Below are positions 4,306-7,381 of a stretch of 7,381 bases of DNA, piece by piece; the stretch's first letter is position 1; every line of letters starts with the position of its first letter. The notes beneath the pieces are model-generated. The model was not told the origin of the DNA, ran no database searches, and was given only the letters and a program-made list of their open reading frames with translations. A program made the position numbers and the translations under genes. The DNA is from Pseudomonadota bacterium (GTDB lineage Bacteria; Pseudomonadota; Alphaproteobacteria; Acetobacterales; Acetobacteraceae): the NCBI GenBank assembly GCA_021808055.1, contig JAKBCH010000079.1, positions 1 to 7,381 of the forward strand. The letters are read 5' to 3'.

Positions 4306-6072
4306 CTACAATGCCAGCGCCACCGCTTTGAATATCTGCGCGGGCAAACTGCCGCCGACCAGGTTCTTGCCCGGCGCATTGTCATCATTGCCAAGCCAGA
4401 CGGCGATGATCTCGCCTTTCGCGTAACCCACAAACCAGCCATCCCGGTAATCCTGCGTGGTGCCAGTTTTACCCGCCGTATAAACCCCAGGAATAAACGC
4501 TGCCGTGGCCGTGCCGGAAAGCACCACCTGGCGCATCATCGCCGCCACTGCCCACGCATCGCCCGCAGGCACTGCTGGCACGGGCGCTGGCACATGCGCG
4601 GCAACGCCATTGATAGCGGTAACGCCATAAGGCGTCACACGCTCTCCGCCATTGAAAAACGCGGCATAGGCGCTGGCGAGCTGCATAACACCCACCGCAC
4701 CCGTGCCCAGCGCCATGGTTGCGTCATCCGGGAAATGATCATCCAGCCCCAAAGCGCGCGCCACGGCGATAACCCGCCTTGGCCCACCCGCGCGCAGCAG
4801 GATGCGGATGGCGGCGGTATTCATCGAATCCGCCAGCGCCTCGGTCATGCTAACCTCGCCGTGATACCCCTTCTCGTAGTCATGCGGGCGGTAGCCACGC
4901 AGGTTCAATGGCGCGTCCAGCACTGTTGAATCAGGGCTCATCCCCGCCATCAGACCGGCCAGCCAGACGATGGGTTTGATCGCAGAACCCGTCTGCCGCC
5001 GGGCCAGCACGGCGCGGTTATAGCCCTCACGGTCGCCCACCCCGCCGACGATGGCACGCACCGCGCCGGACCGTGCATCCAGCACCACCACCGCTCCTTG
5101 CGAGACCTGATATTTGGCACCCTGCATCTCAATAGCGGAATCCAGTGCTGTCTGGGCCGCGGTTTGCACACCTGGGTTCATGGTAGTGGTGAAGGTCACA
5201 TCCTCACCTTCAGGGATCAGCCCTGCCTCATGCTGGATGGTCCAGAGCGCGAACCATGAACTTCGGGAGATGGGCGAGGCCGCATCGCCCAACTGGGCTG
5301 TGGCCGCATTTTCCTGCTCAGGCGTGATAACGCCGGTGGCCACCATGGCGTTCAGCACCTCGGTCGCGCGGGCGGAGGCGGCCTGGGCGTTTACCAGCGG
5401 GTTGAGGCTGGAGGGGGCCTTGGGCAAGCCAGCCAAAATCGCGGCCTGGGCGAGGCTCAGGCGCGAGGCTGGCTCGTTAAAATAAAGCCGCGACGCGGCA
5501 TCCACCCCATAAGCGCCACCGCCCAGGTAAACCCGGTTGAGATAAATGCCCAAAATCTGTGCCCGGCTGTAATGCCGCCAAAGCCAGAGGGAAAGAAAAG
5601 CCTCTTGCACCTTGCGCCGCAACGTGCGCTGGTTGCCAAGGAACAGCGTTTTGGCCACCTGCTGGGTGAGAGTGGAACCGCCCTGCACCACATGGCGGTG
5701 AATAACATCCGAGACCAAAGCACGGAAAATTCCCCGGCTGTCAAACGCACCATGCTGATAAAACCGCCGGTCTTCTATGGCGATGAAGGCAGCGGGCACA
5801 TAGGCCGGAAGAGCTGATGGCAGCACCACCCGGCCCGAGACATCACCAAACCGGGCCACCAGCTGCCCTGCCGGGTCAAGCAGCCTTATCGCCGGGCGGC
5901 GGGTTTGGGTGATGGCGATCGCCGGATTCGGCATATTCCAGGTAAACCAAAGCCCCGCGAGCCCTGCCCCCACCGCACCCCAGATGCCCAGCATGATGAG
6001 GACCCGCGCCACTGCCCAAGTGCTGCTAAGGCGGCGTTTTAGAACAGGAGACGGCTTAGGCAGCAGGGGCAT
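4306..6072 (-). CDS. Class A penicillin-binding protein (bifunctional transglycosylase/transpeptidase, PBP1 type)
   Basis: A 588-residue bitopic enzyme that polymerises and crosslinks peptidoglycan in the periplasm. A basic cytoplasmic stretch is followed by one membrane segment (about 22-44). The GT51 domain covers about 70-235: the catalytic Glu100 in IAIEDRRF, QGGSTLTQQ (130-138), the second catalytic Glu157 in RKVQEAF, and LNRVYLGGGAYG (168-179). The transpeptidase domain has all three penicillin-binding motifs: SxxK at Ser363-Lys366, SxN at Ser416-Asn418 and KTGT at 535-538. It is short beside E. coli PBP1a (about 850), lacks large inserts and stops soon after the transpeptidase fold. 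The ATG at 6072 is preferred because AGGGAAGG sits just upstream; an in-frame TTG at 6090 would add six residues. Its TAG directly abuts the antiporter TGA. Confidence 0.93.
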   Translation of the reverse strand: MPLLPKPSPVLKRRLSSTWAVARVLIMLGIWGAVGAGLAGLWFTWNMPNPAIAITQTRRPAIRLLDPAGQLVARFGDVSGRVVLPSALPAYVPAAFIAIEDRRFYQHGAFDSRGIFRALVSDVIHRHVVQGGSTLTQQVAKTLFLGNQRTLRRKVQEAFLSLWLWRHYSRAQILGIYLNRVYLGGGAYGVDAASRLYFNEPASRLSLAQAAILAGLPKAPSSLNPLVNAQAASARATEVLNAMVATGVITPEQENAATAQLGDAASPISRSSWFALWTIQHEAGLIPEGEDVTFTTTMNPGVQTAAQTALDSAIEMQGAKYQVSQGAVVVLDARSGAVRAIVGGVGDREGYNRAVLARRQTGSAIKPIVWLAGLMAGMSPDSTVLDAPLNLRGYRPHDYEKGYHGEVSMTEALADSMNTAAIRILLRAGGPRRVIAVARALGLDDHFPDDATMALGTGAVGVMQLASAYAAFFNGGERVTPYGVTAINGVAAHVPAPVPAVPAGDAWAVAAMMRQVVLSGTATAAFIPGVYTAGKTGTTQDYRDGWFVGYAKGEIIAVWLGNDDNAPGKNLVGGSLPAQIFKAVALAL

Positions 6073-6116
6073 CGCCTTCCCTGCTGCCAACCGTGCGCAG
6101 ATGCGTCAACCGCTGT

Positions 6117-6153: not shown

Positions 6154-6192
6154 GCGGGCGTGGCGAAATCGGTAGACGCACCGGACTTAAAA
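6154..6192 (+). tRNA. tRNA-Leu(UAA), 5' half only, interrupted in the anticodon loop
   Basis: The sequence reads as a standard leucine tRNA up to the anticodon loop: acceptor 5' strand GCGGGCG (6154-6160), T8-G9, D arm GCG / AAATCGGTAGA / CGC (6163-6179), A26, anticodon stem CCGGA (6181-6185) and loop CTTAAAA (6186-6192). The anticodon is TAA at 6188-6190. The next five bases should be TCCGG to close the stem but are ACCGA, and no variable arm, TTC loop or acceptor 3' strand follows anywhere in the window on either strand. As it stands this end cannot give a tRNA. The break falls where element DNA with an integrase gene begins, which indicates site-specific insertion in the anticodon loop. 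Intron interruption at the same place is the alternative. Confidence 0.85.
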
Positions 6193-6206
6193 ACCGATTG
6201 AGTCCG
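6182..6206 (+). other. Hairpin joining the tRNA anticodon stem to the inserted sequence (group I P1-like or recombinase core dyad)
   Basis: CGGACTT (6182-6188) is complementary to GAGTCCG (6200-6206): six Watson-Crick pairs plus a T-G wobble at 6188/6200, and the helix can continue with A6189-T6199 and A6190-T6198. Position 6188 is U34 of the tRNA. In group I introns, P1 pairs the 5' exon with the internal guide and places a U-G wobble at the splice site; the known tRNA-Leu(UAA) introns of cyanobacteria and plastids splice after U34. Alternatively, the dyad is a tyrosine-recombinase core site whose left arm is the tRNA stem. I see no group I P, Q, R or S core elements within the window, which favours the second reading. 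Confidence 0.45.
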
Positions 6207-6256
6207 ATAAAAGCATCGTAACTAATTGATTTAAATAAAGTATTGAGAATCAAAAA

Positions 6257-6275
6257 CTTACACAACTCTTACACA
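6257..6275 (+). repeat. Tandem CTTACACA repeats, possible arm-type integrase sites
   Basis: CTTACACA occurs at 6257-6264 and again at 6268-6275, an 11-bp period and so about one helical turn, in the AT-rich DNA between the tRNA junction and the integrase start. Tyrosine integrases of the lambda class bind short direct repeats in the attachment-site arms with a separate N-terminal domain. Position and phasing fit that role; binding is inferred. Confidence 0.45.
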
Positions 6276-6285
6276 GAGCTAGACT
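6257..6285 (+). promoter_or_regulatory. Candidate integrase promoter overlapping the CTTACACA repeats
   Basis: CTTACA (6257-6262) and TAGACT (6280-6285) each match the sigma-70 consensus at 4 of 6 bases and are 17 bp apart. Transcription would begin near 6292, giving a leader of about 12 nt before the ATG at 6304. The -35 lies in the first CTTACACA copy, so bound integrase could repress its own gene. This is a weak motif call. Confidence 0.3.
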
Positions 6286-6298
6286 TTTGCCAAAAATG

Positions 6299-6319
6299 CG
6301 CGTATGCGTACGCGTATGC
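6299..6319 (+). repeat. CGCGTATGC direct repeat across the integrase start
   Basis: CGCGTATGC is present at 6299-6307 and 6311-6319, separated by GTA, so the segment is a 12-bp period and contains the palindrome GCGTACGC. Both candidate integrase start codons (6304 and 6316) sit inside the repeat units. It may be an operator or excisionase site, or simply a duplicated start region. Confidence 0.5.
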
Positions 6320-7381
6320 CGGTCAGTCATGAGCTCCTCGGCGGAAAACTCCACGTCTACCGCCGCGAAAATTCGCCGTTCTGGCAATGCGCCGCCTATG
6401 TGAACGGGCGCAATCACCGCGTCAGCACAAAGGAAGAAAGCCTAAGCCGCGCCAAGGATTTTGCCGAAGACTGGTTCCTTGAGCTCAAGGGCAAAGTGAA
6501 GCGCGGCGAAGCCCAGAGCGGTGGCATGACCTTCGACAAGGCCGCGGATCAATTTCTGAAAGAATTTGTCGCGCTGACGGCGGGCGAACGCAGCCCGGTT
6601 TATGTGCAAGGCCACCAGGACCGGCTGCGCGTTCATCTCCGACCGTTCTTCGGCAAGAAGGCACTCACCGAGATCACCCCCGGTGTAGTTCAGGACTACC
6701 GGATTCACCGGATGACCTCGCGCAAGCACCCGCAGACCGGCGAGCCGATGCGCCCGGCCAAAAACACGCTCCACCAGGAAATCGTCTGCCTGCGCCAGGT
6801 GCTCAAATGTGCCAACCGGCACGGCTGGCTTGCCTATCTTCCCGACCTTTCCGCGCCGTTCCGCGCCTCGGGCAAGGTCTCACATCGCGGCTGGTTCTCA
6901 CTGGAAGAGTACAACCAGCTCTGGCGCGCCACGCAGCGCCGGGCGAAGAAACCGCCCAAGGCGCGCTGGCGGCGCTCTTGCGAACAGCTGCATGACTACG
7001 TGCTGCTCATGGCCAATACCGGGTTGCGGCCGGACGAAGCCGCCCGGCTGCAATTCCGTGACGTGACTGTGGTGATGGACGAGGCCACCCAGGAGCGCAT
7101 CCTCGAAATCGAAGTGCGCGGCAAGCGCGGCACCGGCTATTGCAAGAGCATGCCGGGCGCCGTGATCCCGTTCGAACGGCTGCGCAACCGGCTGCGCCCG
7201 GTCATCGAGGAGAAAGAGGACGGCGAAGAACCGTCCGGCCGATCCGAGTCGGCCTCGACCGAGATGGTCAAGCCCAAGCCCACCGACCTGCTGTTCGACC
7301 GCAGCCACCGGGAGCTGCTGAAAACGGTTCTGGAGGAAGAAAAGCTGAAATTCGACCGTGAGGGCAATCGCCGCAGATCGG
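6304..7381 (+). CDS. Tyrosine-type site-specific recombinase (element integrase), N-terminal 359 codons
   Basis: A phage/ICE-type integrase that would move the element in and out of the tRNA gene; the frame is open to the right edge. Residues 1-65 resemble the arm-binding N-terminal domain, with YRRENSPFWQCAAYVNGRNHRVST. Residues about 75-180 form the SAM-like core-binding helices (TFDKAADQFLKEF, KNTLHQEIVCLRQVLKCANRHGW). The catalytic domain starts near 198; box I is NTGLRPDEAARL with catalytic Arg242. The beta-hairpin lysine is probably Lys274 in RGKRGTGYCK. The HxxR box and the nucleophilic Tyr must lie beyond the window, so an intact enzyme is not proven. A linker around 301-325 is rich in Glu, Ser and Lys. 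Start: ATG at 6304 or 6316, neither with a visible Shine-Dalgarno site; an in-frame TAG at 6280 limits extension. It lies 112 nt past the tRNA match. Confidence 0.9.
   Translation, partial: MRTRMPVSHELLGGKLHVYRRENSPFWQCAAYVNGRNHRVSTKEESLSRAKDFAEDWFLELKGKVKRGEAQSGGMTFDKAADQFLKEFVALTAGERSPVYVQGHQDRLRVHLRPFFGKKALTEITPGVVQDYRIHRMTSRKHPQTGEPMRPAKNTLHQEIVCLRQVLKCANRHGWLAYLPDLSAPFRASGKVSHRGWFSLEEYNQLWRATQRRAKKPPKARWRRSCEQLHDYVLLMANTGLRPDEAARLQFRDVTVVMDEATQERILEIEVRGKRGTGYCKSMPGAVIPFERLRNRLRPVIEEKEDGEEPSGRSESASTEMVKPKPTDLLFDRSHRELLKTVLEEEKLKFDREGNRRRS

What the first reader, a model, noticed from the sequence alone, without database searches (positions are those of the whole stretch)
6154..6206. tRNA-Leu(UAA) broken in its anticodon loop and not restored at the integrase-proximal end
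Seen: a perfect tRNA-Leu 5' half through the loop CTTAAAA, then unrelated DNA with an integrase gene. Known: tyrosine integrases use a few tRNA sublocations, the anticodon loop among them, and elements usually carry the downstream tRNA part so that the gene on the promoter side is restored. Inference: here the side keeping the host promoter and 5' half was left broken. Either the element carries its own 5' half and rebuilds the tRNA at its far end from an element promoter, or the tRNA is lost or duplicated elsewhere, or the insert is spliced out of the RNA.
Basis: partly seen in the sequence, partly recalled or inferred. Interest (0 to 1): 0.75.

Follow-up and report, generated by a model that had tools for sequence, protein, structure and literature searches.

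The report
Mobile element breaks, then replaces, tRNA
The broken leucine tRNA marks one edge of a mobile element that destroys its host's tRNA gene; close relatives of the element bring their own complete replacement gene, in most cases interrupted by a predicted self-splicing intron at the spot where the element's integrase would otherwise act.

Summary
Window 6154-6192 is a host tRNA-Leu(UAA) 5' part ending in the anticodon loop, followed by an integrase gene; six relatives carry the intact tRNA beside the same gene. The far end lies outside the window, so relatives supply the mechanism. In G692 (same chromosomal locus, integrase 90% identical) and G008 (same integrase clade) the element carries a SECOND tRNA-Leu(UAA) 50 bp after the integrase stop, interrupted in its anticodon loop by a group I intron (whole in G008; cut by the contig end in G692). 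In G008 (11.1 kb, with a relaxase) and G076 (15.0 kb) the far end holds the orphaned host 3' half: neither junction restores the tRNA. This is the logic of phage 'tRNA-dependent lysogeny' (mBio 2024), here in an integrase element of Acidocella relatives. Eight elements plus one relic were found; all nine replacement genes differ from attB in the loop, by an intron (6) or C32->U (3, two of them identical). Boldest untested reading: the intron hides the replacement gene from the element's own integrase. Against it: phage Gaia's replacement tRNA has an unbroken loop, and some Acidocella have native tRNA-Leu introns. New variant of a known kind.

The parts
6154..6192 (+). host tRNA-Leu(UAA) 5' part through the anticodon loop (loop 6186-6192 CTTAAAA); left side of attL
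   Evidence: match to intact tRNA-Leu(UAA) in L002-L007
6176..6192 (+). attachment core ACGCACCGGACTTAAAA as deduced from G008, where both ends are known; presence as core in the window is by analogy
   Evidence: shared by attL and attR of the G008 element; same letters in the window
6193..6206 (+). element side of attL, differing from the intact tRNA at 6193 and 6197
   Evidence: same letters through 6200 in G692
6258..6275 (+). two TTACACA repeats 11 bp apart (6258, 6269), candidate arm-type integrase sites (inferred)
   Evidence: 0 of 2000 mononucleotide shuffles hold the pair; similar pairs at the same place in G008, G692, G076, G121 and (10 bp apart) G292; TTACACA also at the G008 far end
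6304..7380 (+). tyrosine integrase gene, cut off by the window end (359 of about 426 codons)
   Evidence: PF14659; 90% identical to the G692 integrase, clade with G692 and G008 100/100
4306..6090 (-). penicillin-binding protein gene, host flank that fixes the locus
   Evidence: PF00912, PF00905; neighbour of the intact tRNA in L002-L007
2515..4305 (+). Kef-type exchanger gene (my label), host flank
   Evidence: PF00999, PF02254

Best explanation
The window shows attL of an integrative element of an Acidocella relative (Alphaproteobacteria) that uses tRNA-dependent integration. Its tyrosine integrase recombines a short attP core with the anticodon loop of tRNA-Leu(UAA). The core is too short to restore the tRNA at either junction, so the host gene is destroyed (5' half here, 3' half at the unseen far end). 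The element supplies a complete tRNA-Leu(UAA) gene just downstream of the integrase, predicted near position 7635, about 250 bp beyond the window. In the relatives of this integrase clade that gene is split in its anticodon loop by a group I intron, which must be spliced out to give a working tRNA. Shown in the window: broken 5' half, core letters, arm-like repeats, integrase. Shown only in relatives: orphaned 3' half, replacement gene, intron. Inferred: integration chemistry, expression, splicing, need for growth.
For: Intact tRNA at the same place in 6 of 8 relatives. G692: same locus, same junction, integrase, then after 50 bp a second tRNA-Leu 5' half and 80 nt of the intron before the contig ends. 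G008: the same with a whole intron (RF00028 56.3 bits, gathering 50) and the host 3' half 11,081 bp from attL. Outer halves of G008 pair with each other (GTGGGTG/CACCCGC), the inner copy with itself (GCGGGCG/CGCCCGC). Joined outer flanks give tRNA-Leu(UAA) in G008 and tRNA-Leu(CAA) in G076; joined exons give tRNA-Leu. Leu-targeting integrases, the window's included, form one clade (100/99). In 5 of 5 UAA-targeted genomes the patterns found no intronless tRNA-Leu(UAA) elsewhere.
Against: The window's own element end is unseen; its replacement gene and intron are predictions. Far ends were found for only 2 of 8 elements. Missing tRNA-Leu(UAA) copies may be assembly gaps: 6 of 38 genus genomes show neither an intronless copy nor a known intron or element copy. 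No expression or splicing data.
Confidence: 0.87

Rival explanations
1. Restoring island of reversed layout: the far end rebuilds the tRNA from an element-borne 5' half joined to the host 3' half.
For: Would also leave a broken 5' half here; in G076 and G694/G696 the acceptor letters alone cannot tell host from element copy.
Against: In G008 and G076 the far end is core plus host 3' half without a 5' half. In G008, G121, G292 and G022 the inner tRNA's acceptor stem pairs with itself and differs from the host 5' half.
Confidence: 0.06
2. The host keeps a second intact tRNA-Leu(UAA), or lives without it, and the element carries no replacement.
For: Cannot be excluded for the window, whose genome is not held. 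G696 has a further intact CAA gene besides its element copy.
Against: Every Leu-targeting element seen past its integrase (8 of 8, plus relic G707) carries a replacement gene or its 5' half. UAA-targeted genomes show no other intronless copy.
Confidence: 0.05
3. Assembly chimera or pseudogene fragment rather than an att junction.
For: None found.
Against: The same junction at the same locus in another assembly, and the same design in other elements.
Confidence: 0.01
4. About the intron only: it is passive baggage, captured with a neighbour's intron-bearing tRNA gene, with no role in protecting the gene from the integrase.
For: Group I introns in tRNA genes are common in the group: 83 of 299 family genomes match RF00028 at E<=1e-4, 18 of 299 over the cut-off. 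Three Acidocella genomes (G698, G704, G708) and G289 have them in native tRNA-Leu(UAA). Gaia's and Fionnbharth's replacement tRNAs have unbroken loops.
Against: Native intron-bearing tRNA-Leu(UAA) is a minority in the genus (3 genomes, against 26 with an intronless copy), yet both UAA element lineages have it (Fisher p about 0.02, post hoc, lineages not truly independent). Intronless CAA elements carry U32 where 34 of 34 other CAA matches have C32.
Confidence: 0.6

Closest known systems
tRNA-dependent lysogeny of actinobacteriophages (Guerrero-Bustamante and Hatfull 2024, PMC10865867; abstract, results sections 5, 6 and 10, discussion and search passages read)
   Same: Tyrosine integrase, attB in a tRNA, short core, tRNA not rebuilt at the junction, element-borne tRNA of the same isotype; phage Gaia uses tRNA-Leu(CAA) with its tRNA downstream of the integrase
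   Different: Alphaproteobacterial element with a relaxase (G008), no phage relatives found; replacement tRNA mostly interrupted by a group I intron. The two phage tRNAs checked are not interrupted
Caldiarchaeum tRNA-Thr disruption (Sugahara et al. 2012, PMC3293823; abstract, passages and part 1 of 2 of the discussion read)
   Same: tRNA 5' fragment, recombinase gene, then a complete tRNA with an added intron; the authors propose that an element-borne intron could prevent further invasion
   Different: Archaeal tRNA introns (protein-spliced class, recalled), not group I; there the attP itself is proposed to hold the intron
Archaeal tRNA introns that disrupt attB (proposal of Randau and Soell as cited in PMC4090602; passages read)
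   Same: Intron in the target loop proposed to block integration
   Different: Host protection, not a replacement gene carried by the element
IStrons (PMC4227781; search listing with start of abstract only)
   Same: Group I intron joined to a mobile DNA element so that insertion is tolerated
   Different: There the insertion itself is spliced out; here only the intron inside the replacement tRNA
Ordinary tRNA islands (Islander, PMC4383910; search listing only) and the tRNA-fMet sister elements found here
   Same: Integrase of the same family, anticodon-loop target
   Different: They carry the tRNA 3' part beside the integrase and restore the gene there

Membership tests
tRNA-dependent integration (as in tRNA-dependent lysogeny) | Tyrosine integrase with attB inside a tRNA gene | tested here: met
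   Window integrase beside the broken tRNA; integrase clade
tRNA-dependent integration (as in tRNA-dependent lysogeny) | Short core, so no functional tRNA at either junction | tested here: met
   attL in the window; both junctions in G008 and G076. The window's far junction was not testable
[quoted passage not shown]
   In relatives: whole in G008, G121, G076, G694, G696, G292, G022, relic G707; 5' half plus intron start in G692. For the window itself not testable
tRNA-dependent integration (as in tRNA-dependent lysogeny) | The replacement tRNA is required for survival of the integrated cell | not testable with these tools
   Only the apparent lack of other copies
tRNA-dependent integration (as in tRNA-dependent lysogeny) | The element is a temperate phage | tested here: not met
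   G008 element encodes a TrwC relaxase and no phage gene was recognised among 9 proteins; no phage relatives of the integrase. So it works like that system but is not shown to be a phage
Ordinary tRNA-restoring island | tRNA regenerated at one junction from element sequence | tested here: not met
   Window attL; G008 and G076 ends
Group I intron (RF00028), in relatives | Match to the family model over its gathering score | tested here: met
   G008 56.3 bits, G121 51.1, G707 57, G292 51, G022 51.7. G692's fragment did not match
Group I intron (RF00028), in relatives | Self-splicing in vitro | not testable with these tools
   Only P1 with U.G at the 5' splice site in 9 of 9 whole Leu introns and tRNA-like joined exons
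IStron | The inserted element as a whole is removed by splicing | tested here: not met
   The intron is 219-238 nt, inside the replacement tRNA only

The most novel reading that the evidence does not exclude
The group I intron is a self-immunity device. It splits the anticodon-loop attB inside the replacement tRNA, so the element's own integrase, and rivals using the same site, cannot recombine with the essential copy, while splicing keeps the tRNA functional. Intronless elements do the same with a C32->U change in the loop. As elements decay they leave intron-bearing tRNA-Leu genes behind, spreading the introns and site immunity through the population (relic G707).
Probability: 0.35. Interest if true: 0.82.

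Novelty: new variant of a known kind. Interest (0 to 1): 0.64.

Why it matters
It extends the tRNA-replacement strategy from actinobacterial phages to integrative elements of Alphaproteobacteria and joins two usually separate topics, integrases and tRNA group I introns. It offers a concrete route by which tRNA introns could move between species, and makes the old proposal that tRNA introns protect against integration (Randau and Soell, as cited in PMC4090602) testable with one integrase and two versions of one tRNA gene. It also warns that tRNA scans that do not allow introns miss such genes: plain ARAGORN found none in L008 or G692.

Tried and rejected
Rfam on the window gave one match only, a sub-threshold plant snoRNA (6198-6276, E 0.95, 27.6 bits against a gathering score of 43), taken as chance. 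The window integrase had no confirmed relative in viral contigs and the attL 21-mer no match there; the L008 integrase had no match in phages at 1e-10 and only relatives under 60% identity in 8 plasmid records. A protein search gave 6424 relatives at E<=1e-100 among 7999 scored (120 listed) but no genomic context.

I first took the inner tRNA copy of L008 for a far-end junction of a 1.7-kb element; the host 3' half 11 kb away and the acceptor-stem pairing showed that it is internal. A separate origin of the G121 intron from tRNA-Arg(CCU) introns, suggested by one tree, is not supported: one clade of Leu introns is not rejected (p-AU 0.25). The G121 splice site is ambiguous: after U33 gives anticodon CAA; after U34 gives UAA but the intron would then end in C. 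CAA is preferred because the broken host gene is CAA and the only other match in G121 is UAA. ARAGORN's intron mode mis-assigned L081, L082, L085 (Ser) and L088 (His, Ser); the first three give tRNA-Leu when the exons are joined, L088 I assigned by eye.

Literature: ten searches of an open-access library; I saw the listed titles and abstract starts (30 of 240, 20 of 214, otherwise all that were listed) and none described a group I intron in an element-borne replacement tRNA. Most subscription papers are not held, so this is weak evidence of absence. PMC6103662, on anticodon-loop integration in Acidithiobacillus (title seen), is not held. PMC12429752 (passages) reports Sinorhizobium prophages without features of tRNA-dependent lysogeny.

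Full report
1. Observation. Window 6154-6192 is the 5' part of a tRNA-Leu(UAA) up to the end of the anticodon loop (6186-6192 CTTAAAA); the homology then fades. ARAGORN finds no tRNA. The locus reads ammonium transporter (PF00909), FAD-dependent enzyme, Kef-type exchanger, penicillin-binding protein (PBP), tRNA. The nearest relatives found by the PBP include Acidocella aminolytica, A. facilis and MAGs; Acidocella is in Acetobacterales. 6 of the 8 closest (L002-L007) have an intact tRNA-Leu(UAA) upstream of the PBP. L001's contig begins 39 bp before the PBP and cannot show it; L008 is interrupted.

2. The key relative. L008 (MAG contig JAKBAV010000004.1, handle G008) has a related insertion in the same tRNA: host 5' half, integrase (426 aa), then 50 bp after its stop a second tRNA-Leu 5' half, a group I intron (RF00028, 56.3 bits, gathering 50) and a 3' half to CCA. 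The host's own 3' half lies at the other end, 11,081 bp away core to core. Its acceptor strand (CACCCGC) pairs with the outer 5' half (GTGGGTG), while the inner copy pairs with itself (GCGGGCG/CGCCCGC). So the inner gene is wholly element-borne, and neither junction is a tRNA. Joining the outer flanks gives an intact tRNA-Leu(UAA), and joining the inner exons gives tRNA-Leu(UAA). Nine proteins of the element were matched to Pfam: a TrwC relaxase, a RES/Xre pair, a zincin-like peptidase, a TauD-type enzyme, the integrase, one weak recombinase match below its cut-off, and two without a match. It looks mobilizable rather than phage-like.

3. Other members. Integrase searches: 3 of 299 genomes of G008's family at E<=1e-150; 2 of 385 class genomes, one of them G008 and one an fMet-type; 9 of 38 genomes of the Acidocella genus group, 5 Leu-type and 4 fMet-type; with the G121 integrase 2 of 397 at 1e-165; with the G292 integrase 2 of 299 at 1e-140. 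These samples overlap. Leu-targeting elements seen: G008, G692, G292, G022 (UAA) and G121, G076, G694, G696 (CAA), plus relic G707 (UAA). The G694 and G696 loci are identical over 4,218 bp and count as one lineage. In the seven with a whole integrase gene and a readable start of the replacement tRNA other than G694, the tRNA begins 50-97 bp after the integrase stop. G692 sits at the window's locus with the same attL junction; its contig ends 80 nt into the intron, too short for an Rfam match. In G076 the far end is again core plus host 3' half, 14,956 bp away. Far ends of G121, G292 and G022 were not found in the stretches read, nor those of G694 and G696 by a motif scan of the stretches fetched; G692's contig stops first. 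Leu-targeting integrases form one clade (100/99) that includes the window's; the window groups with G692 and G008 (100/100) and is 90% identical to G692. Of the 14 integrases of the sister group, 6 have a complete tRNA-Met and 4 a tRNA-Met 3' part just upstream, the ordinary restoring layout; 4 could not be judged (L052 none seen, L058 and L063 cut off, L079 only the last bases).

4. The replacement genes. All nine differ from attB in the anticodon loop: six have the intron (G008, G692 partial, G707, G292, G022, G121) and three have U32 instead of C32 (G076; G694 and G696, identical). Among 63 matches of a tRNA-Leu pattern in 38 genus genomes, 3 CAA copies have U32 and they are exactly the element copies; 34 CAA matches (3 of them attL halves) have C32; 26 are UAA. 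Fisher p is 1.3e-4, or 0.002 with 2 lineages against 31; the test was thought of after the first U32 copies were seen. Of 30 RF00028 loci returned for 299 family genomes, 4 are tRNA-Leu (L112, L113, L114, L124) and 3 of these stand beside an integrase of this clade, as against 0 of 25 other assigned loci (24 tRNA-Arg(CCU), 1 tRNA-Asn) within the 1.5-kb flanks; 1 is unassigned. L113 is G121, already known from its integrase. Lower-scoring hits were given no loci and were not classified. P1 pairings with U.G at the 5' splice site are possible in 9 of 9 whole Leu introns, native ones included.

5. Native introns and a relic. G698, G704, G708 and G289 have an intron-bearing tRNA-Leu(UAA) with no such integrase within the flanks searched; G704's lies directly after the Kef-type gene, the window's locus without the PBP. 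G698, G704 and G708 had no integrase match at 1e-150. In G707, at the same locus, the host 5' half is degenerate and the integrase is reduced to its last 27 codons or so, while the element's intron-bearing tRNA remains. That is what a decayed element would leave, and it could explain some native introns. The intron tree is too weak to decide the direction.

6. Mechanism. Shown: anatomy. Inferred: the integrase cuts in the loop, the host tRNA is lost, and the element gene takes over from its own promoter (in G694/G696 the stretch before the element tRNA resembles that before the host tRNA, by eye). In 5 of 5 UAA-targeted genomes the patterns found no intronless tRNA-Leu(UAA), so splicing would be essential. 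Incomplete genomes limit this: of the 12 genus genomes without an intronless UAA match, 6 have an intron or element copy and 6 have neither.

7. Known work. The logic is tRNA-dependent lysogeny (PMC10865867). Its discussion suggests that this may occur outside actinobacteriophages and cites a Lactobacillus prophage; its results speculate that a plasmid's own tRNA gene may serve as attB in tandem integration, which is the very problem an intron would solve. It does not mention group I introns. PMC11476347 mentions a similar tRNA replacement in Sinorhizobium (passages). Archaeal work proposed that introns block integration (PMC4090602, passages) and that an element-borne intron could prevent further invasion (PMC3293823). 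What my ten searches did not show is a group I intron inside an element's replacement tRNA.

8. Limits. The window itself proves only attL and the integrase. That its own replacement tRNA has the intron is a prediction (about 0.75) from G692, G008 and G707. Self-immunity is a hypothesis. Against it, Gaia's replacement tRNA keeps an unbroken CTCAAAA loop, and Fionnbharth's loop CTTTTAA is intact and shared with its attP, though the flanking stem letters differ.

Noticed in passing
L098-L111, L115-L117, L119-L123, L125, L126; L084, L086, L088: tRNA-Arg(CCU) with a group I intron is common among these relatives (24 of 30 family loci by ARAGORN; L084 and L086 by ARAGORN and L088 by eye in the genus).
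   Followed up: partly
L097 (G151:C1:5997540-5997787): A strong RF00028 match (78.5 bits) that ARAGORN's intron mode places in a tRNA-Asn(GTT).
   Followed up: no
L045-L049, L051, L053-L055, L075: A sister group of integrases sits beside tRNA-Met complete genes or 3' parts, several directly after rRNA operons; some genomes hold several such elements.
   Followed up: partly
L089 12605-12645 (G692) and L096 8462-8520 (G704): The penicillin-binding-protein gene that separates the Kef-type gene from the tRNA in the window is absent at this place in both genomes.
   Followed up: no
L001 1-39: The contig of a close relative ends 39 bp before the PBP start, near where the tRNA would be; possibly an assembly break at the same kind of insertion.
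   Followed up: no
L077, L078: Two different genomes (G696, G694) carry an identical 4,218-bp integrase-tRNA stretch: recent transfer, close kinship or a shared contaminant.
   Followed up: no
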